Source: Candidatus Palauibacter scopulicola
GTDB taxonomy: Bacteria; Gemmatimonadota; Gemmatimonadetes; Palauibacterales; Palauibacteraceae
Direction: 5' to 3'
Assembly (NCBI RefSeq): GCF_947581915.1
Contig: NZ_CANPWG010000021.1
Coordinates: 1 to 64,000, forward strand
DNA length: 64,000 bases
In this document: one piece after another, positions 15,768-59,583 of the stretch
Numbering within the stretch: position 1 is the stretch's first letter
Layout of the letters: each line of letters starts with the position of its first letter
Program-made: the position numbers and the translations under genes
Notes under the pieces: generated by a model
Database searches by the model: none
What the model was told of the DNA's origin: nothing
What the model saw: the letters and a program-made list of their open reading frames with translations, nothing else

Positions 15768-17945
15768 ATGTCCGGGTCCATGAACATTCTGTCTCAAGCC
15801 TTCCTCCGCCGCACGCCGCGGCGGATCCTCCAGCTGACCGCGGTCTTCGTACTGGCCGCCTCCTTCGGGGCGCCCGAAGCCCGCGCCCAGGCAGACGACG
15901 CCTGGACCCCGGCGCTGAGCATGCAGTACCGCGCGGTCTCCGGCACCGCGATCTCCCCCGACGGCTCCCGCATCGCCTTCGTCGTGCGCGAGCCGCTGAT
16001 GGAAGGACCGCAGTCGGAGTACCTGAGTCACATCTGGATGACGGACGCGGACGGGACACCGGCCGCGCAGTGGACGCGTGGGGAGGCGTCGGCGGGGTCG
16101 CCGCAGTTCTCGCCCGACGGCGCGTGGCTGAGCTTCACCTCCGGCCGCGACGGAGAGGGCGAGGCGGGCAGCCAGGTGTGGGCGCTGCCGATGACGGGCG
16201 GCGAGGCGCGGCAGCTCACGAAGGCGGAGGGGTCCGTGGCGGGGTACCGCTGGTCGCCGGACGGGACGCGGATCGCCTTCCTCATGCGGGATCCGCCGAC
16301 CGCGGAGGAGAAGAAGGCGCGGGAGGAGAAGCGGGACGTGATCCTCGTGGACCGGAACTACAAGTTCTCGCACCTGTACGTGGCCGCCATCGACGCGGAC
16401 TCGGACGAGCCCGCAACTCCCGTTCGGCTCACGGCGGGCGACTTCCACATCACCGGCTTCAGCTGGGCTCCGGAGGGGGGACGGATCGTGTTCGCGCACC
16501 AGGTCGATCCCCGCATCAATACGGGGCGGCTGAGCGGAGACCTCTCCACGACCACCGTTCCGGACGCCGCCGAGATCGGTGAAATCCTGGCCGCGCGGGA
16601 AGCCGAGGCGGATGAGGACGAAGACCCGGCCGAGGGCGCCGACGCCGATCCGGCCGCGGTCGGGGAGGTCGCGCTCCTCGTGGGCGGGGCAGGGATCGAA
16701 GGGAGTCCGCACTGGTCGCCGGACGGCTCCTGGATCGCTTACGTGTCGACCGGAAATCAGCCGGAGCCGATCGGCCTCGGCGACGTATACGTGATGCCGG
16801 CCGAGGGCGGCGAGGCCCGCCGGCTCGAGACGCCGAACCGGAGCGCCTTCGTCCTCGGCTGGTCGGGCGACTCCTCCGAACTGCTGCTGCTCGAAACGCT
16901 CGGCACGCGCCGGCACGTGCTGGCCGTTCCGGCCGCTGGCGGCGAGATGCGCTTCATCTCCTACGGGGACGGCGTGGTGGGCTCCGTCGCGCTCAACGAC
17001 GACGCGAGCCGCATGGCCTTCACGTGGCAGACCCCCGACGAACCGTGGGACGTCTTCGTGTCGCCCACGAACGGGTACTCCCCACAGCAGGTGACGGATC
17101 TCCATGCCGGCGTGCCGCGCCCGGAGATGGGACGCACGCAACTCGTCTCGTGGACTTCCACCGAGGGGTTCGAGATCGAAGGGCTCCTCACCTACCCCGT
17201 GGGCTACGAGGAAGGCGAGCGCGTGCCGCTCATCCTGAACGTGCACGGCGGGCCGGCCGGCGTGTACAGCCAGAACTTCACGGGCTCGCCCGCCATCTAC
17301 ATGCTCCAGTACTTCGCGCAGCAGGGCTTCGCGATCCTGCGCCCGAACCCCCGCGGCTCCACCGGCTACGGGAAGGACTTCCGCTACGCCAACTTCCAGG
17401 ACTGGGGCTACGGCGACTTCCGTGACCTCATGTCGGGGGTCGACCACGTGATCGACATGGGGGTGGCGGACCCGGATCGCCTCCTCCTCATGGGCTGGAG
17501 CTACGGCGGCTACATGACGTCGTGGGCCGTCACGCAGACGGACCGCTTCGTGGCGGCGAGCATGGGAGCCGGACTCCCGAACCTGATCTCGATGACGACG
17601 ACGACGGACATCCAGGACTATCTCGCGGGCCACATGGGCGTCGAGTTCTGGGAAGACTACGAGCGCTACGAGCGGCACTCGGCGATGTACCACATCGCGA
17701 ACGTGGTCACGCCGACGCAGGTGATTCACGGGGCCGAGGATCTGCGCGTCCCCTTCACGCAGGGGCAGGAGTTCTACCGCGCCCTCGACCGCCGCGGCGT
17801 GCCGACGGAGATGGTTGTGTACCCGCGCACGCCGCACGGGCCGCGCGAACCCAAGTTCACGATGGATGTCTCCGAGAGGATCCTGACCTGGTTCCGGAAG
17901 CATCTAGGGTCGGAGGCGGTTACGGCCGCAGGCGCGGGCCGCTGA
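15768..17945 (+). CDS. Secreted S9 family peptidase (dipeptidyl/acylaminoacyl-peptidase type)
   Basis: A 725-aa exported serine peptidase. An N-terminal signal peptide (hydrophobic LTAVFVLAASFG, cleavage near ARAQA) is followed by a WD40/TolB-like propeller with repeated SPDG motifs, and a C-terminal prolyl-oligopeptidase catalytic domain. The triad is Ser578 (GWSYGGY), Asp658 (HGAEDLR) and His690 (TPHGPR). An acidic insertion (~residues 275-300, rich in E, D and A) lies within the propeller. A GAGAGG ribosome site 7 nt before the ATG at 15768 supports this start over the upstream in-frame one at 15690. Confidence 0.93.
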   Translation: MSGSMNILSQAFLRRTPRRILQLTAVFVLAASFGAPEARAQADDAWTPALSMQYRAVSGTAISPDGSRIAFVVREPLMEGPQSEYLSHIWMTDADGTPAAQWTRGEASAGSPQFSPDGAWLSFTSGRDGEGEAGSQVWALPMTGGEARQLTKAEGSVAGYRWSPDGTRIAFLMRDPPTAEEKKAREEKRDVILVDRNYKFSHLYVAAIDADSDEPATPVRLTAGDFHITGFSWAPEGGRIVFAHQVDPRINTGRLSGDLSTTTVPDAAEIGEILAAREAEADEDEDPAEGADADPAAVGEVALLVGGAGIEGSPHWSPDGSWIAYVSTGNQPEPIGLGDVYVMPAEGGEARRLETPNRSAFVLGWSGDSSELLLLETLGTRRHVLAVPAAGGEMRFISYGDGVVGSVALNDDASRMAFTWQTPDEPWDVFVSPTNGYSPQQVTDLHAGVPRPEMGRTQLVSWTSTEGFEIEGLLTYPVGYEEGERVPLILNVHGGPAGVYSQNFTGSPAIYMLQYFAQQGFAILRPNPRGSTGYGKDFRYANFQDWGYGDFRDLMSGVDHVIDMGVADPDRLLLMGWSYGGYMTSWAVTQTDRFVAASMGAGLPNLISMTTTTDIQDYLAGHMGVEFWEDYERYERHSAMYHIANVVTPTQVIHGAEDLRVPFTQGQEFYRALDRRGVPTEMVVYPRTPHGPREPKFTMDVSERILTWFRKHLGSEAVTAAGAGR

Positions 17946-50445: not shown

Positions 50446-50913
50446 CTATGCTCCGCTCGCCGCCGCGAAGTCGAGGGCGAGCCGGCAGCACAGCGACCCG
50501 CGGTCCGCCCCGCCCCGGAGTTCGGACGGCAGCTTCCAGTCCCACTCGGAATACTGGGTGACGCCGGGGACGGACTGGGGCACGCGGGGTTCGCCCGCCA
50601 CGACCCGGGCCGCGTGCAGGCGCATCTCGAGCCGATAGCCCGGCCGGTCGAGGTGGCCCTCGCTCAGGCGGCCCAGATCCTCGGCCTCCACGCCGAGCTT
50701 CTCGCGGCCGATGCGCCGGACGAGCGCCTCGTCCGTCTCGCCGCCGGCATGCGAGCCCGCGGGCAGGCCCCACACGCCGGGCAGATCGGGATCGTCATCG
50801 GGGCGGCGCACGAGCAGCCAGCGGCGCGTCTCTCCGGCCGGCCCGGGAGCTTCGATCACGAGGGCCAGCGCGGTACGCGAAGGGCGGGCCCCGGAGCCGC
50901 GGCCACCCGTCAC
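50446..50913 (-). CDS. Nudix hydrolase with degenerate catalytic box
   Basis: A 155-aa Nudix-fold protein. The box begins correctly, G-x5-E in GSHAGGE, but the REUxEE part reads RIGREK: the first Glu is Ile and the last is Lys, leaving one catalytic acidic residue. The rest of the fold, including LVIEAPGPAG, WLLVRRPDDDPDLPGVWGLPAG and the final helix, fits. Its start is GTG, overlapping the stop of the upstream propeller-hydrolase gene. It may have weakened or altered activity. Confidence 0.8.
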   Translation of the reverse strand: MTGGRGSGARPSRTALALVIEAPGPAGETRRWLLVRRPDDDPDLPGVWGLPAGSHAGGETDEALVRRIGREKLGVEAEDLGRLSEGHLDRPGYRLEMRLHAARVVAGEPRVPQSVPGVTQYSEWDWKLPSELRGGADRGSLCCRLALDFAAASGA

Positions 50914-53539: not shown

Positions 53540-56500
53540 TCAGCGCCGCCAGGCCGACGCGCCGGGGAGTCCGCTGCTCACCAACACTTCGAGCCCCGGC
53601 TCCGGCGCGCGGTCTTCCGCAGCGGTCTGGGCCAGCGGACCGGGCGGCAGGTCGGTGAGAATGGCCCGCACCTGGCCCGTTCCCGGGTCGCGCAGGATCG
53701 CGACCGGAGGCTCGCTTCCCTCCGTCATCTCGACGCTCCCGTCCGGCCCGGAGAGCACCAGGCTCGTCAACTCCGTCGCCCACGCCGGCTGGACGGGCAG
53801 CGCGAAGGAGAATCCCGACCGCCCGTCGCCATCCCACAGGCCCGCCATCGTGAAAGCCAGAGAGAACAGTTCGCCGCCGTCCGCCCGGCGCCCGGTCAAC
53901 CGCCACGGTCCGCCCGCGGTGGGCACGGCCGGTCGCGTGTCGACGACGAAGGCGGGATCGAGCCAGGGATCGCCGTCCGCCGTGACGCCGCCGGAGACCA
54001 CGAGCATCCGCGAGGCGGCCGGAGCTTCCCGCCGCACGTCGGTCGTGTCCTGGAGACGGAAGCGCAGCGCGTTCGAGAAGTAGTAGTCGCTCACCCACGA
54101 CGGGTCGCAGTACGTCATGAAGTCCCGAACCGTGGATGTGGGGTCCACGAGCGAGCCGCCGTCGCGCGGATCCCAGCCCCAGACACCGATCCCTCCGTTC
54201 TCGTACGGGTAGGTCAGGTCCGGGCCTTCCTCGTCTCCTCTGCACGTCGCGTGCGACAGGCTGATGTTGTGTCCGAGTTCGTGCGCGATCGTCTCCGCGC
54301 TCAGCCGCGAGGCCGCGGTCTTCCCCAGGTGCGTGAGGCTGTCGGGCCCGAACGGCAGCCACGCGACGCCGTTGGTACCGCCGGCAGGATTCGGGAGGAG
54401 ACCCAACCAGTGTCCGACCCCATTCTCCACAGTCCGGATGGTCACCACGCGACTCAGGATCTCGAGCATGTCGTTCGTGTCGACCCTCACGCTTGCGTGG
54501 CGGATGATCTCCAGCTCTCCGACGGGGAGATAGTTGTTCGTCTGCCAGAAGATCTCGTCATCCGGGTCGGCGTTGCTGACGAGCGTCACCGCGTCCTGGT
54601 CGTTGTCGACGGTCGAGACGAAGGGGATCAGGGTCAGGTACATCGGAGGCACGGCCTTCACATCGACGGCCGATCGTCCAGTCTCGGGGACGCGCTTCGA
54701 CACGCCCAGATTCGGATCGAGCGTCCCATCCGGGTCGACCTCCACCACCATCTCCAGTCCGGGCTGGATCACCTCGGCGGGGATGATGGCGTGGGGCGAG
54801 AGGTCCAGTTCGCCTTCCTGCACTTCCGTTGGAATCACGGACGAACCGGCGGGGATATCCTCCACGTGCACCTCCGCGCCATCCACGAAGAACGTGGCCC
54901 GGACGGGCGGCATCATCGCCCCGGTCTCCTGTTCGGATGTCACGAAGACGCGCAGGAGCGCTTCTTCCCCGGCCACCAGGGGAACGGGATAGTCCCGCGA
55001 CTGTACCGCCTGCGTCAGGTAGGCCTCGGCGTGGGCTTCGGCCCCGCAGGTCCGGATCCGGTACTTCGAGAGCGCGGATTCCAGCCACGCGCGGAAGGCG
55101 GGAGTCTGCGGCATGCACAACCCGGTGTCCGCCGCCTGCAGTTCGAAGATCTCCTCGAGCGCGGTCATGCTCTCCGGCAGCGGTCCCGACAGGTCCGGGT
55201 TGCCATTGAGCCGCACGGTGTTGAGCCGGCTGGCGTCGCCGAGGTCGGCGGGCAGCGGTCCGGACAATCGGTTGTTCTCCGCCCAGAGGAACACCAGGCT
55301 GTCGGCCTGGCCGAGTCCGGCCGGAAGCGGTCCCTCGATGTCGTTGTCGGAGACCCAGAGCGAGAACAGGCTGTCGAGTTGCCCAATCCAGGAAGGGAGG
55401 GGGTCCGACAACTCGTTGTCGTACAGGCGGATCGCGCGGAGCTTCCCGAGCGCTCCCAGGCTCTCGGACAGTCCCCCGCCGATGTTCGTCCCCGTGATGC
55501 GGAGAACCTCCAGCTCGCTCAGGTTGCCGAACTCCGCCGGGATCGAACCGTCGAACTTCGATTCGTACAGATTGAGCACCCGCAGGCTGTCGAGGTTGCC
55601 TAGTTCGGGCGGGATGGGGCCGGACAGTTGGTTGCCGTCCCCGCCGCCCAACCAGAGGACTTCGAGCCTCGCGAGGTTCCCGAGCTCCGGCGGGATGCCG
55701 CCCCTGAACGGGTTTCCGTCGATGTCCATGCGCCGCAGTTCGGTGAGGAGGCCGATCTCCGCCGGGATCTCGCCCTCGAGCCGGTTGTAATCCAGGCGCA
55801 GGACGCGCAGGTGCGGGAAGTACTGGATCTCGGTGGGGACCTCACCGGAGAGGTTGTTTCGATTCAGGTTGATCGTCGTGACCCGTCCCGTGGAATCGTC
55901 GACGGCGATGCCGTACCAGTTCTCCAACGGGGCGCTGGTTCCCCAGTTGGCGGATTCCGTCCAGGCCTCCCCGCCCATGGCCTCGTACAACGCCATCAGG
56001 TCGGACCGTTCCTCGTTGCAGGCGAGGAACTCGCCAGCGCGCGTCGGAATCGCGTTCAGCCACGCCTGGAAGTCCTCGTCGCGCACCGTGCACAGCATCG
56101 TGCCGCCGTAGTTGAGCGTCTGGATGCCCAGGTCCGACAGGGAGAACGGGATGGGACCGGAGAGGTTGCCGTTTCCGCCCACCTCCACTTCGGTGAGGAA
56201 GGCCATGCTGCCGAGATCCTCGGGAAGCTGACCGTTGAGGCCGTTCTCGCTCAGGTCGATCGCCGTCACGCGGGACTGTTCGTTCGCCGTCAGGCCGTAC
56301 CAGCTGCCGACCGGCGCGTCGGTCCCCCAGCCGCCGTTGTTCGTCCACTCGCCCCCGCGCGTGCCGATGTAGAGGTCCATGAGCGTCGCGCGGTCCTGGC
56401 TGTGAACGGCGACCGGGGCGGAGTTCGAGACGGGGCCCGACGTGGCGGTCAGGCTCGCGTTCCCCTCCTTGAGGCCGGTCACGAGGCCGGTGGCATCGAC

Positions 56501-56821
56501 CGTGGCGGTAGCCGGATCGCTGCTCGTCCATGTCACCACCGCATCGGAGATGGGCTGCGCCCGGTCGTTCAGGACGCGCGCACGCACCCGAACCGTGTCG
56601 CCCGCCACGACCGCGACCTCCTCCGGCTCCAGCGTGATTCTCGCCGGCACGGTCGCGGTCGGAGGCGGAGGCGGAGGCCCGGGCGGCGGTCCCGAAGTGT
56701 CGCCGCCACCGCAGGAGAGGATGGCCAGACCGAGAAAGCCGAGCGCCGCGGGACGCCAGACACGGGCGCGAGAGAAAGCTGAACCGTCGGAGTCGAGGGT
56801 GGTGCGGGTGTGCTTCCTCAT
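53540..56821 (-). CDS. Lipoprotein with Ig-like domain, leucine-rich repeats and metzincin protease domain
   Basis: A 1093-aa protein. The lipobox-like LAILSC is followed by a Gly/Pro-rich spacer, then an Ig-like (Big_2-type) domain (ITLEPEEVAVVAGDTVRVRA ...). Residues ~140-580 are plant-type leucine-rich repeats (L-x-GPIPPELGNL form), broken near 225-270 by a small Cys-bearing segment. The C-terminal half is a zinc protease with HELGHNISLSH at residues 847-857 (His847, Glu848, His851, His857), a metzincin-like HExxHxxxxxH in which the usual Gly is Ser. It resembles secreted M66-like proteases. It would be a surface-anchored protease whose repeats bind a protein or glycan. Confidence 0.85.
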   Translation of the reverse strand: MRKHTRTTLDSDGSAFSRARVWRPAALGFLGLAILSCGGGDTSGPPPGPPPPPPTATVPARITLEPEEVAVVAGDTVRVRARVLNDRAQPISDAVVTWTSSDPATATVDATGLVTGLKEGNASLTATSGPVSNSAPVAVHSQDRATLMDLYIGTRGGEWTNNGGWGTDAPVGSWYGLTANEQSRVTAIDLSENGLNGQLPEDLGSMAFLTEVEVGGNGNLSGPIPFSLSDLGIQTLNYGGTMLCTVRDEDFQAWLNAIPTRAGEFLACNEERSDLMALYEAMGGEAWTESANWGTSAPLENWYGIAVDDSTGRVTTINLNRNNLSGEVPTEIQYFPHLRVLRLDYNRLEGEIPAEIGLLTELRRMDIDGNPFRGGIPPELGNLARLEVLWLGGGDGNQLSGPIPPELGNLDSLRVLNLYESKFDGSIPAEFGNLSELEVLRITGTNIGGGLSESLGALGKLRAIRLYDNELSDPLPSWIGQLDSLFSLWVSDNDIEGPLPAGLGQADSLVFLWAENNRLSGPLPADLGDASRLNTVRLNGNPDLSGPLPESMTALEEIFELQAADTGLCMPQTPAFRAWLESALSKYRIRTCGAEAHAEAYLTQAVQSRDYPVPLVAGEEALLRVFVTSEQETGAMMPPVRATFFVDGAEVHVEDIPAGSSVIPTEVQEGELDLSPHAIIPAEVIQPGLEMVVEVDPDGTLDPNLGVSKRVPETGRSAVDVKAVPPMYLTLIPFVSTVDNDQDAVTLVSNADPDDEIFWQTNNYLPVGELEIIRHASVRVDTNDMLEILSRVVTIRTVENGVGHWLGLLPNPAGGTNGVAWLPFGPDSLTHLGKTAASRLSAETIAHELGHNISLSHATCRGDEEGPDLTYPYENGGIGVWGWDPRDGGSLVDPTSTVRDFMTYCDPSWVSDYYFSNALRFRLQDTTDVRREAPAASRMLVVSGGVTADGDPWLDPAFVVDTRPAVPTAGGPWRLTGRRADGGELFSLAFTMAGLWDGDGRSGFSFALPVQPAWATELTSLVLSGPDGSVEMTEGSEPPVAILRDPGTGQVRAILTDLPPGPLAQTAAEDRAPEPGLEVLVSSGLPGASAWRR

Positions 56822-56864: not shown

Positions 56865-58856
56865 CTAATCTAGAGATGTGCCGCCGGCTTGGCATCCTCC
56901 GAGGTGCTGGTCGAAGAAGGCCTGGAGCCGACTGTACATGTCGATCGAATTGGCGGGGTCCCGGAAGCCGTGGCCTTCGGGGTACGTCTTCGATTCGAAC
57001 TCCTTGCCCAGCGCCTCCAGCCGCTCGACCGCGAGTTCGAAGTTCTCGAACGGCGCCCTCACGTCGAATTCTCCGTGCATGATGAGGACGGGGGCCGTGA
57101 TGCGGTCCAGCCGGTCGAGCGTCTCGCTCTTTGCGTAGATCTCGGGCCGCTCCTCCGGCGTCCCGCCGTGCCCCGTGATCGCGAAGATCTTCCCCACGCG
57201 GTCCGCGTACGGGAGGGTCAGGGACTCGGAGTAGATGCCGCGCATGGGGACGGCCGCATCGAACTTGTCGGGCGTCCGCGTGATCGCGGACATGGACTGC
57301 ATGCCTCCGTAGCTCCCGCCGTAGATGCCCACGCGCCCGTTCACGTACGGCTGGCGGCGCAGCCAGTCCGCCGCGGCGCCCGGATCCTTCGACTGGTCGT
57401 TCAGCCAGTCCTCGACCGAGAGGTCCTGAAACTCGCGCCCGAAGCCGGACCCGCCGCGATAGTTGATGGCGAGCACGACGAAGCCCTCGTTCGCGAGGTA
57501 CTGCTCCACGAGGTTCGTCCCCTGGGTGTAGGAGTTCGTCCCTCCCCCGTGTACCTGGACGAGAGCGGGGCAAGCGGGCGGGTCGGAGCCGGCGGAGTGC
57601 GCGGCCCGGATCGCCGGCGGCAGGTAGAGAAATCCCTGGATGTACAGGCCGTCGAAGGAGCGGAAGGAGATCTCCGCGGGCCGCTGGACGCCCTCGAAGT
57701 GGGGCGAGAAGTCCGTGAGGCGGGCCGGGACGCCGCCGTCGAGGTCGACGAGCCAGGCTTCCCTGCCCTCCGTCGCGGCATCGCGCGTGAACGCGGCGCG
57801 GCGGCCGTCCGGCGTCGCGTGCAGGGACGACCAGGACCCTCCGACGTTCGTGACCCGCGTGGCGACGCCGCCCGAGGCGGACACGGACCACAGGTCGAAG
57901 GCTCCGCGCTGCTGGTACGGGAAGTAGATGCGCGCGCCGTCGCCGGACCAGAAGGGATCGAAACGCATGATCGCGTCGGTCGCGTAGACCTGCATGTCGA
58001 GCGGCGCCTCCCGGAGGACGCGGGGCGCGGGGCCGGCGAGATCGAGGTCGATCCGATACAGGTAGGCGAGATCCTGGTACCAGTATTCGTCCTTGGCCGT
58101 CCCCAGCAGGGCGAGGCTCGACCCGTCCGGCGACCAGACGGGGCTGGATGAGGCCATGAGCGAAGTGGAGACCCGGTGCGCTTCTCCGGACGCCACGCCG
58201 ACGAGCCACACGTCGTCGTGCCACCAGTCGGCCCGGTTCGAGACGTAGGCGATCCACCGGCCGTCCGGCGACCACATCGGACTGAAGCGGCTGTCCTCGG
58301 CCTCCGCCGCGCCGGTCGTGAGCTGCCGGGGCGCCGCCGCCCCGGCGGCGTTGACGAGCCAGATGTCCTGGGAACCGGACGCCGTGGAGTAGTAGGCGAG
58401 CGTCTCCCCGTCCGGTGACCACGACGGGGCCCGCAGGCCGCTCGCGCCTTCCACCACCACCCGGCCCGGCTCTCCCGTCGCGGCGACGAGGAGGTTCCCT
58501 CCCGCGATGAAGGCCAGCCGCCCTCCATCCGGAGACCACGTCTGCGCGCGCCCGGCGACCCGGAAGGTCGAGGCGTCGGCGGCGGCCACCCCCTCCGCCG
58601 TCGCCGGGATCGGGACGAGGTGGACCCCGGATCCGCCCGCACCTTCGGCGGGTCCGGACACGGCGAGCGTGGATCCGTCGGGCGAGAGCACCGCGCGTCC
58701 CGCGCCCCCTCCGGCGGTAAAGACGTTCTCCAGCGTGAGAGGAATCCGGCCGTCGTTGACGACTCCGCCTCCGGGGAGCGACCAGCCTGCGGCGAGGAAC
58801 CCCATGACCGCGGGCAGCAGATAGCCGATTCGGACCGTTCGCGGGGATCGAGGCAC
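56865..58856 (-). CDS. Secreted S9 family peptidase
   Basis: A 663-aa serine peptidase. A signal-like segment (GYLLPAVMGFLAAGWSL) precedes a TolB-like propeller and a prolyl-oligopeptidase domain. The nucleophile is Ser515 in YGGSYGGM; the acid is the Asp in MHGEFDVRAP; the base is the His in YPEGHGFRDP. The GTG at 58856 has a GAAGGAGGAG site directly upstream and gives a normal start; the ATG at 58985 would lie in the divergent gene's promoter region. Confidence 0.92.
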   Translation of the reverse strand: MPRSPRTVRIGYLLPAVMGFLAAGWSLPGGGVVNDGRIPLTLENVFTAGGGAGRAVLSPDGSTLAVSGPAEGAGGSGVHLVPIPATAEGVAAADASTFRVAGRAQTWSPDGGRLAFIAGGNLLVAATGEPGRVVVEGASGLRAPSWSPDGETLAYYSTASGSQDIWLVNAAGAAAPRQLTTGAAEAEDSRFSPMWSPDGRWIAYVSNRADWWHDDVWLVGVASGEAHRVSTSLMASSSPVWSPDGSSLALLGTAKDEYWYQDLAYLYRIDLDLAGPAPRVLREAPLDMQVYATDAIMRFDPFWSGDGARIYFPYQQRGAFDLWSVSASGGVATRVTNVGGSWSSLHATPDGRRAAFTRDAATEGREAWLVDLDGGVPARLTDFSPHFEGVQRPAEISFRSFDGLYIQGFLYLPPAIRAAHSAGSDPPACPALVQVHGGGTNSYTQGTNLVEQYLANEGFVVLAINYRGGSGFGREFQDLSVEDWLNDQSKDPGAAADWLRRQPYVNGRVGIYGGSYGGMQSMSAITRTPDKFDAAVPMRGIYSESLTLPYADRVGKIFAITGHGGTPEERPEIYAKSETLDRLDRITAPVLIMHGEFDVRAPFENFELAVERLEALGKEFESKTYPEGHGFRDPANSIDMYSRLQAFFDQHLGGCQAGGTSLD

Positions 58857-58965
58857 GGCTCCTCCTTCTTCGCGGTGGCGTGGTGTGAGTATTGCCCCGG
58901 GCGATGGTCGGACAATACCGATCAGAGAGGAAAAAACCCATTCCGCGACCGGAGGTCGAAGCGCC

Positions 58966-59583
58966 TTGACCGAACCTGCCGTCACGCTGACCGACTACGG
59001 GCTCACCCTGCTCTGCGCCTTTCTGGTCTGGCGCGCGCGCTCGCACGTGCGGGCCGACCTCCGCCCGTGGGCGATGGGACTCTTCGCCGGCTCCGGCGCC
59101 GCGGCCCTCTTCGCCGGGACGGTGCACGGCTTCTTCGGGGACGCCGCAACCCTCGGCTACCGCGTCCTGTGGCCGGCCACGATCCTCACGGTGGGCGCGA
59201 CCGGGCTCGCGGCCTGGGGGCTGGGCGCCCGCGTCGGCGGTCGGGGGATCGGTGCGCGGTGGATCACGCGAATCGCGGGGCTCGCGTACGTCGCCTACGT
59301 CGCCGTCGTCCTTGCCGGGTGGCAGGCGTTCGCCGTCGCGGTCGCCTTCTATCTGCCCGCCGTCATCTATCTCACGGTGCGCTTCGCGCTCGCCTGGCGC
59401 CGCCGCCCCACCGCAAGCCGGCGGCGGGCGCTGATCGGCTTCGGTCTCACCTTCGCGGCGGCCGCCATCCAGCAACTGCAGATCCCGATCCACCCGGTGT
59501 GGTTCGACCACAATGCGCTGTACCACGTCGTGCAGGCGGCGGCGTTCGTCCTGCTCTATCTGGGCGTGAGCGGCGAAGAATAA
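58966..59583 (+). CDS. Membrane protein, DUF6962-like
   Basis: A 205-aa protein with about six helices. The TLTDYGLTLLCAFLVW start and the closing WFDHNALYHVVQAAAF motif fit the DUF6962-type family, with a conserved His-rich last helix. The TTG at 58966 has GGAGG 10 nt upstream; an ATG at 58885 lies farther up in a less plausible leader. The S9 peptidase gene begins 30 nt downstream. Confidence 0.75.
   Translation: MTEPAVTLTDYGLTLLCAFLVWRARSHVRADLRPWAMGLFAGSGAAALFAGTVHGFFGDAATLGYRVLWPATILTVGATGLAAWGLGARVGGRGIGARWITRIAGLAYVAYVAVVLAGWQAFAVAVAFYLPAVIYLTVRFALAWRRRPTASRRRALIGFGLTFAAAAIQQLQIPIHPVWFDHNALYHVVQAAAFVLLYLGVSGEE

What the first reader, a model, noticed from the sequence alone, without database searches (positions are those of the whole stretch)
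53540..56821. Surface lipoprotein joining leucine-rich repeats to a metzincin protease
A lipobox, an Ig-like domain, plant-type leucine-rich repeats and an HELGHNISLSH zinc site (His847, Glu848, His851, His857) occur in one chain. The metzincin motif lacks the usual Gly. Repeat-type binding modules on a bacterial protease suggest targeting of a protein or glycan, for example of a eukaryotic host or of competitors.
Basis: partly seen in the sequence, partly recalled or inferred. Interest (0 to 1): 0.55.

Follow-up and report, generated by a model that had tools for sequence, protein, structure and literature searches.

The report
LRR-armed mucinase-like lipoprotein of sponge symbionts
A bacterium of a sponge-associated genus carries a probably surface-anchored protein that joins plant-receptor-type leucine-rich repeats to a zinc protease built like a known mucin-cutting enzyme, and it and some distant relatives hold many copies, which hints at a repertoire for recognising and cutting proteins of the host or its surroundings.

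Summary
ORF 53540-56821(-), 1093 aa, has a lipobox, a proline-rich linker, a Big_2 domain, two blocks of plant-type LRRs, and a metzincin with HELGHNISLSH (847-857) and Met-turn MTYC (902-905). The missing Gly is a family trait: Ser in 62, Gly in 29 of 123 relatives.

The gene is one of about eleven copies in this genome. The genome belongs to the Palauibacter genus (Gemmatimonadota), which holds the sponge MAGs of its order. Of 16 other genomes of the genus, 13 have 7-21 matches and 3 none; of 18 genomes of sister genera, 1 has one weak match. Plant-type LRRs were found in 22 of 22 genomes with LRR-bearing copies and 0 of 29 others. LRR-bearing copies interleave in the tree with those of another family, which seems to include Gaopeijia.

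Most likely it is an outer-membrane lipoprotein protease whose LRRs recognise the substrate, perhaps host glycoproteins. Activity, substrate and host role are inferred. Not a new fold or enzyme class; a new variant of an M66-like protease.

The parts
53540..56821 (-). Gene for the LRR / M66-like metzincin lipoprotein, 1093 aa
   Evidence: ORF; relatives at the same place in 12 fetched loci of the genus
56711..56821 (-). Lipoprotein signal peptide, residues 1-37, lipobox ILSC, lipid Cys37, +2 Gly
   Evidence: Sequence; a lipoprotein-like signal found by a rough pattern in 44 of 79 relatives tested (at least two of the 44 look false, and some of the 79 are open at their N-terminus)
56648..56710 (-). 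Gly/Pro-rich linker, residues 38-58
   Evidence: Sequence
56408..56638 (-). Bacterial Ig-like domain Big_2, residues 62-138
   Evidence: Pfam E 3.4e-14
56018..56401 (-). LRR block 1, about residues 141-268, with its own cap segments (Cys244/Cys268)
   Evidence: Read by eye; cysteine positions; the pairing is inferred
55046..56014 (-). LRR block 2, about residues 270-592, some ten plant-type repeats, cap segments (Cys569/Cys592)
   Evidence: Pfam LRR; PDB plant receptor kinases; block means of pLDDT mostly 80-96 for about 300-570 in the full-length model
54668..55030 (-). N-terminal beta domain of the protease module, about residues 598-718 (CARDB-like)
   Evidence: AlphaFold model; within the StcE alignment span; CARDB chain 3idu in the Foldseek list; Pfam CARDB in 1 of 49 members
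54023..54664 (-). Metzincin catalytic domain, residues about 720-933
   Evidence: Realigned to ADAM/adamalysin folds, Z 10-11.6 over model 125-336
54251..54283 (-). Zinc motif HELGHNISLSH, residues 847-857, Ser854 in the usual Gly position
   Evidence: Sequence; conservation
54107..54118 (-). Met-turn MTYC, residues 902-905; Tyr904 at Met+2; Cys905 (probable pair with Cys860)
   Evidence: Met 119, Tyr 117, Cys 123 of 123
53543..54016 (-). C-terminal beta domain of the protease module, residues 936-1093
   Evidence: AlphaFold model; the StcE alignment runs to model residue 450
56865..58985 (-). Upstream gene: S9 prolyl-oligopeptidase-family peptidase, 43 bp before the LRR-protease gene
   Evidence: Pfam S9 E 7.7e-39; at the same place in 9 of 12 loci, two of the other three cut short by the contig end
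50910..53477 (-). Downstream gene, 62 bp on: PD40/DPPIV_N propeller protein of 855 aa (called PHP in my scripts from memory; no PHP model was hit)
   Evidence: Pfam PD40, DPPIV_N; 12 of 12 loci
50446..50913 (-). Next downstream gene, overlaps the preceding one by 4 bp; NUDIX-like by eye
   Evidence: ORF; 12 of 12 loci; name not tested with a family search

Best explanation
It is a cell-surface protease of a bacterium of the sponge-associated genus Palauibacter. The protein is exported, lipidated at Cys37 and held on the outer membrane by a proline-rich linker and an Ig-like stalk. Two capped LRR solenoids bind a protein or glycoprotein and present it to a StcE-like (M66-type) zinc metzincin at the C-terminus, which cuts it outside the cell. 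Copies differ in LRR number and in the catalytic core, so the family works as a set of surface proteases of different specificity. The likeliest substrates are glycoproteins of the host matrix or mucus. Shown by sequence or model: domain order, intact catalytic residues, metzincin fold, StcE-like layout, family expansion, purifying selection. Inferred: export and lipidation, proteolytic activity, LRRs as substrate binders, O-glycoprotein preference, host as target. Rough odds: active zinc protease 0.85, surface lipoprotein 0.85, LRRs recognise the substrate 0.6, host material as main substrate 0.4, O-glycoproteins 0.3.
For: Fold: model of residues 596-1093, pLDDT 90.6, pTM 0.90; best realigned chain StcE 3ujz, Z 12.7, 336 residues over model 1-450, then ADAM-8 at Z 11.6 with 173 residues. 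Pfam M66 at E 0.1 or better in 47 of 49 family members, best 4.4e-9. Zinc motif intact in 117 of 123 members; Met 119 and Met+2 Tyr 117 of 123; that Tyr is lost in 3 of the 6 members with a broken motif but in 3 of the 117 with an intact one. Seven cysteines: Cys37 and three plausible pairs. LRRs closest to plant receptor kinases, whose ectodomains bind ligands (recalled). Expansion: 13 of 16 other genomes of the genus have 7-21 matches (fragments counted), against 1 weak match in 18 genomes of sister genera and 0 of 8 in the next family of the order. LRR_1 found in 14 of 17 genomes of the genus, 0 of 18 of sister genera. Sponge MAGs of the order fall in one genus, soil and sediment species in 8 others (PMC10469786 section 11). 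StcE, CpaA and the lipoprotein BT_4244 are listed as O-glycoproteases, and Ig-like folds recur in such enzymes (PMC7542363 passages).
Against: The Pfam M66 match is short (47 of 306 positions) and barely over its cut-off; Reprolysin models also match many members. Foldseek's own listed top 50 hold neither StcE nor another metzincin; the StcE match comes from realigning Foldseek's candidates, with rmsd 7.6 and 15% identity, about 1 Z above ADAM-8. The full-length model is poor over the protease (mean pLDDT 53), so the placing of the LRRs against the active site is unknown. No positive selection on the LRRs. Relatives without plant-type LRRs exist in other families, so the protease does not need them. 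S9 or propeller neighbours are rare at other copies.
Confidence: 0.5

Rival explanations
1. General scavenging: the proteases digest extracellular protein for food, with peptides passed to S9 peptidases; host association is incidental.
For: An S9 peptidase gene lies 43 bp upstream and a DPPIV-like propeller gene 62 bp downstream, and the arrangement is conserved in the genus. Three genomes searched hold 28-32 S9 matches each. Relatives occur in 131 of 298 genomes of the phylum.
Against: Only 4 of 54 other protease loci have an S9 or propeller homologue in the fetched stretch, so the pairing is mostly local to this locus. LRRs and 7-21 copies are not obviously needed for scavenging, and the sister genera, which hold the soil and sediment species, lack the family but for one weak match.
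Confidence: 0.25
2. Adhesin first: LRRs bind host or neighbour surfaces and the protease serves to release or mature the protein; cutting a target is secondary.
For: LRR proteins of the same make but without the protease exist in the genome. Six of 123 relatives have a broken zinc motif but keep LRRs and an alignable protease region; two of them, in different genomes, share the same altered motif and are sisters.
Against: 117 of 123 keep the motif. Genes of the second tandem type differ from the window's gene most in the catalytic core (61-66% identity) and least in residues 1-270 (81-93%), which suggests that the two types differ in what they cut (drift not excluded).
Confidence: 0.15
3. Weapon against other microbes or protist grazers in the sponge.
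For: The lipoprotein signal and copy number would fit; no direct evidence.
Against: Nothing specific; immunity genes and delivery parts were not searched for.
Confidence: 0.1

Closest known systems
StcE and StcE-like M66 metallopeptidases (mucinases)
   Same: Metzincin core with beta domains on both sides; Pfam M66 over cut-off; best realigned fold match
   Different: About 15% identity over the aligned part; Ser for Gly in the zinc motif; lipobox, whereas StcE is secreted by type II (PMC7542363 passages); LRR blocks in front; no substrate known
CpaA (M72) and BT_4244 (M60), O-glycoproteases
   Same: Extracellular zinc proteases with Ig-like domains; BT_4244 is listed as an extracellular lipoprotein (PMC7542363 table 1, passages)
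   Different: Other MEROPS families; no LRRs (recalled)
Plant LRR receptor kinases (GSO1, FLS2, PEPR1)
   Same: Same repeat type, LxxLxLxxNxLxGxIP
   Different: Bacterial lipoprotein with a protease in place of the membrane span and kinase
Eukaryotic-like repeat proteins of sponge symbionts
   Same: LRR proteins are reported as enriched in sponge-associated bacteria (PMC8163846 passages)
   Different: The passages seen treat them as repeat proteins and mention no fused protease

Membership tests
Peptidase M66 (Pfam PF10462, StcE family) | Profile match over the curated cut-off | tested here: met
   22.2 bits (25.0 for the C-terminal part alone) against 20.6; marginal and partial, 47 of 306 positions
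Peptidase M66 (Pfam PF10462, StcE family) | StcE-like fold and domain layout | tested here: met
   Z 12.7, 336 aligned over model 1-450, best of 1000 realigned chains, rmsd 7.6; not in Foldseek's own listed top 50
Peptidase M66 (Pfam PF10462, StcE family) | Cleavage of O-glycosylated proteins | not testable with these tools
   Needs protein and substrates
Metzincins | Three-His zinc motif with Glu, HExxHxxxxxH | tested here: met
   H847 E848 H851 H857; 117 of 123 relatives
Metzincins | Gly at position 8 of HExxHxxGxxH | tested here: not met
   Ser854; across 123 relatives S 62, G 29, N 14, D 7, H 5, R 2, F 2, Y 1 and one not shown. As it is a trait of the whole branch with an otherwise kept site, I treat it as a variant and rest the filing on fold and zinc motif
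Metzincins | Met-turn and overall fold | tested here: met
   Met902; fold match to ADAM/adamalysin domains over model 125-336; geometry not measured
ADAM/reprolysin M12B | Pfam Reprolysin model over cut-off | tested here: not met
   Whole protein: Reprolysin_4 18.8 against 22, Reprolysin_3 17.3 against 22.4, Reprolysin_5 15 against 27; C-terminal part alone 19.5, 18.8 and 16.5
Plant-type LRR proteins | LRR profile over cut-off, plant repeat consensus | tested here: met
   LRR_1 83.6 bits against 20.6; plant kinases top the PDB list
Outer-membrane lipoproteins | Lipobox and surface exposure | tested here: inconclusive
   Lipobox present by eye and pattern; localisation not testable

The most novel reading that the evidence does not exclude
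Sponge-associated Gemmatimonadota of two families share, by repeated gene exchange, a repertoire of receptor-like proteases: LRR ectodomains of the plant receptor type, varied in length from copy to copy, each steering a StcE-like mucinase core at the cell surface to a particular host glycoprotein, with some copies turned into inactive decoys or lectin-like binders.
Probability: 0.25. Interest if true: 0.75.

Novelty: new variant of a known kind. Interest (0 to 1): 0.5.

Why it matters
LRR proteins are a recurrent but unexplained signature of sponge symbionts. Here the repeats are joined to an enzyme that can be assayed, so one of the eukaryotic-like repeat families becomes directly testable: what does the LRR bind and what is cut. 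If the habitat link holds, the pair of LRRs and this protease subfamily could serve as a genomic marker of host association in Gemmatimonadota, and the set may be a source of new O-glycoproteases.

Tried and rejected
Rejected: chance ORF (conserved, purifying selection). Rejected: S9 peptidases as a fixed partner of the family; of 54 other protease loci, two have an S9 homologue in the fetched stretch (L106 at 57% identity, L097 at 28%) and two a propeller homologue (L103, L085) (stretches of 5-19 kb). Rejected as a habitat proxy: molybdenum-cofactor genes. PMC11651109 (passages) says only host-associated Gaopeijiales showed potential for cofactor synthesis, so I predicted, in a note before looking, that expanded genomes would have MoaC/MoaA and others not. 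The prediction failed: both are near-universal (53 and 55 of 58 genomes), also in G112, the genome whose length equals that of the cultured type strain. So the habitat of the expanded genomes outside Palauibacter stays unknown. A search for four genome or contig lengths in papers gave nothing relevant.

Full-length AlphaFold with 14 rows gave a poor protease part and was not used for domain arrangement. Foldseek's listed top 50 held no metzincin; its first rows are alignments with rmsd above 17 and TM-scores of 0.15 or less to the model, which I disregard. My pattern for plant-type LRRs misses other LRR types: L109 scored 0 by pattern but has LRR_8 by Pfam, so 'LRR 0' means no plant-type repeat seen in the stretch held, and many loci hold only about 500 residues before the protease.

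In print: no paper describing an LRR/M66 fusion, or this family in Gemmatimonadota, was found in full-text searches of the open PMC library. Subscription papers are not covered. Papers: PMC10469786 passages and section 11; PMC11651109, PMC8163846, PMC9531527, PMC7542363 passages only; all others as search listings.

Whether LRR/M66 fusions exist outside Gemmatimonadota was not settled: the single scan of named genomes used patterns from one protein and finds close relatives only; four of its 14 loci are distant relatives in other phyla, whose upstream parts I did not examine.
Full report
What is there. The reading frame 53540-56821 on the minus strand codes for 1093 residues. In order: a lipoprotein signal with lipobox ILSC at Cys37 and a Gly/Pro-rich linker; a Big_2 Ig-like domain at 62-138; LRR block 1, about 141-268; LRR block 2, about 270-592, with some ten plant-type repeats; and residues 596-1093, the protease module. 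Both LRR blocks begin with the same kind of cap segment and end in a cap with two cysteines (244/268 and 569/592), read by eye. The seven cysteines of the chain then fall into place: the lipid Cys37, the two cap pairs, and Cys860 with Cys905 beside the active site (positions; the pairing is inferred). Cys905 is present in 123 of 123 relatives and Cys860 in 119.

The protease module. AlphaFold with a 49-row alignment gave mean pLDDT 90.6 and pTM 0.90. Realigned against the 1000 chains that Foldseek ranks highest, the best is StcE, the M66 mucinase of E. coli (3ujz; Z 12.7, rmsd 7.6, 336 residues over model 1-450); next come ADAM-8 (Z 11.6, 173 residues) and snake-venom and ADAM catalytic domains at Z 10-11, which mostly cover model 125-336 only. 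StcE thus also spans the beta domains before and after the catalytic domain. Against this: Foldseek's own listed top 50 held no metzincin, the rmsd is large, and StcE leads by only about 1 Z. Pfam M66 matches 47 of 49 members at E 0.1 or better, best 4.4e-9, but the matches I saw cover a short part of the model. A profile search of PDB sequences gave snake-venom enzymes first, at E 8e-4 and worse. HELGH lies in a predicted helix (residues 842-852) and the Met-turn Met902 stands before the next long helix. Zinc distances could not be measured. I therefore call it M66-like, with the catalytic domain secure and the M66 filing probable.

The missing Gly. Across 123 relatives the position holds Ser in 62, Gly in 29, Asn in 14, Asp in 7 and others in the rest; among the 85 rows with two or more plant-type repeats by pattern, Gly is in 8. 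By the tree labels, Gly is in 17 of the 24 rows outside the clade that holds the LRR-bearing rows. The Met-turn has Tyr at Met+2 in 117 of 123, as in astacins and serralysins where that Tyr binds zinc (recalled). Six of 123 have a broken zinc motif; all six are in family f6 and have plant-type repeats by pattern. That Tyr is lost in 3 of these 6 and in 3 of the 117 with an intact motif. The Tyr is therefore probably part of the site, and those six are probably inactive.

Whose gene. Ten of the 14 loci found in named genomes are Gemmatimonadota at 68-93% identity: four from Candidatus Palauibacter species and six from MAGs without a species name. Contig lengths tie several anonymous genomes of the window's genus to these names (for example G002 to P. 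rhopaloidicola and G015 to P. poriticola). In the order Palauibacterales, sponge MAGs fall in one genus, and the soil and sediment species in eight others (PMC10469786, section 11).

Copy number. The window's genome has 14 matches to the protease module, which I count as eleven copies plus fragments. In 60 genomes (the window's own included), 13 of 16 others of the genus have 7-21 matches, fragments counted, and 3 of 16 none; of 18 genomes of sister genera 1 has one match at E 9.9e-4; of 8 in the next family of the order none; of 17 further class members 7 have matches, and three of these, all in family f6, have 10-21. Phylum-wide, 131 of 298 genomes match at E 1e-10 or better (at most 5 candidates per genome were scored there as a rule, so copy numbers are cut). 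Family f6 holds a genome of 4,224,903 bases (G112), the exact length given for Gaopeijia maritima DH-78 (PMC11651109), from which I infer its identity; it has one copy, with no plant-type repeat in the stretch held.

LRRs go with the protease subfamily. I searched LRR_1 in 51 genomes: the window's and 16 others of the genus, 18 of sister genera, and 16 of f6. I had picked the 16 knowing that 8 have LRR-bearing copies and that 7 showed none in the copies held (for G199 no copy had been fetched, and of some others not every copy). LRR_1 was found in 14 of 17, 0 of 18 and 8 of 16; the last 8 are exactly those with LRR-bearing copies. The three genomes of the genus without the protease also lack the LRRs. 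So 22 of 22 genomes in which I saw LRR-bearing copies, and 0 of 29 others. As the f6 half was chosen by protease type, this is no independent test of the coupling there: it shows that plant-type LRRs were not found in f6 genomes without LRR-bearing copies.

Descent. In a tree of 123 protease modules (199 stretches reduced to 123 by removing near-copies; quick method, so its stars are to be trusted less) every row with plant-type repeats by pattern lies in one clade of 99 rows (support 100) made only of Palauibacter and f6. Palauibacter rows do not form one group: starred branches force at least 5 changes of label. On a subset of 72 rows (27 Palauibacter, 45 f6; rows with fewer than two repeats by pattern, rows of 420 residues or fewer and 12 near-copies left out) one clade for Palauibacter is rejected (difference in log-likelihood 306, p-AU 3e-51). 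Since the sister genera lack the family, exchange between the two families seems likelier than common descent with many losses, but the closest pair across families among the fetched rows is only 66% identical, so any exchange is old or between unsampled kin.

The locus. The order S9 peptidase, LRR-protease, propeller protein, NUDIX-like gene, facing a sodium:solute symporter, is kept in the genus: the propeller, NUDIX-like and symporter genes in 12 of 12 loci, the S9 gene in 9 of 12, two of the other three ending at a contig edge (a thirteenth locus, L075, is a copy elsewhere in G002 and has none of these neighbours). Three loci (L064, L065, L068) have two LRR-protease genes in tandem. Genes of the second type (L064a, L065a, L068b, L070, L071) share residues 1-270 with the window's gene at 81-93% identity but the catalytic core at only 61-66%, with dN/dS 0.29-0.45 in that core. 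The simplest reading is an old tandem duplication, conversion of the front half, and divergence of the catalytic core; the two tandem genes of one genome were not compared with each other. The window keeps one type only. Genes of the window's type (5 compared) show dN/dS 0.18-0.36 in the LRRs, 0.18-0.33 in the catalytic core and 0.13-0.21 in the whole protease module: constraint, with no sign of positive selection on the LRRs.

How it most likely works. Export and lipid anchoring put the chain on the cell surface; the linker and Ig-like domain hold it away from the membrane; the LRR arcs bind a protein or glycoprotein; the metzincin cuts it. StcE and related O-glycoproteases act on mucins and cell-surface glycoproteins and commonly carry Ig-like folds (PMC7542363 passages); sponge-associated bacteria are enriched in LRR proteins (PMC8163846 passages). 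Host glycoprotein cutting is therefore the leading inference, not a result. The neighbouring S9 peptidase suggests peptide use at this locus, but such neighbours are rare at other copies (4 of 54 loci).

Limits. One transition (Palauibacter against its sisters) carries the host link; the habitat of the f6 genomes is unknown and my attempt at a proxy failed. Novelty rests on searches of an open-access library. The combination is a new variant of a known enzyme kind, with an unusual expansion.

Noticed in passing
L083:5468-8368 and L185:13582-16521 (also L084, L086, L146, and the first frame of L185): Relatives with LRRs and an alignable protease region but a broken zinc motif; two in different genomes share the same altered motif (HLLGHNFFLGD) and are sisters in the tree, so an inactive form appears to be maintained.
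   Followed up: partly
L193:1345-16416, L180:2514-18033: Tandem arrays of three large LRR-protease genes (open frames of 1621-1881 codons) in Palauibacter-genus genome G004 and in f6 genome G102, with differing repeat numbers.
   Followed up: no
L112:5638-8016, L113:6109-7962, L114:424-2187 (window's genome): LRR proteins with lipoprotein-like starts and similar caps (by eye) but no protease.
   Followed up: partly
L106:7850-10840 (contig 21, about 68,850-71,840, just beyond the window): A copy without LRRs by Pfam, beside an S9 peptidase 57% identical to the one next to the window's gene.
   Followed up: partly
L110:5160-5744, L111:6366-6773, L105:3-2104: Fragments of the protease module and a copy split over two frames in the window's genome: remnants or assembly errors.
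   Followed up: no
window 16191-16821 (-): ARAGORN reports a permuted tmRNA with an unlikely long tag; probably false.
   Followed up: no
G003, G005, G013: Three genomes placed in the same genus that lack both the LRRs and this protease family.
   Followed up: partly
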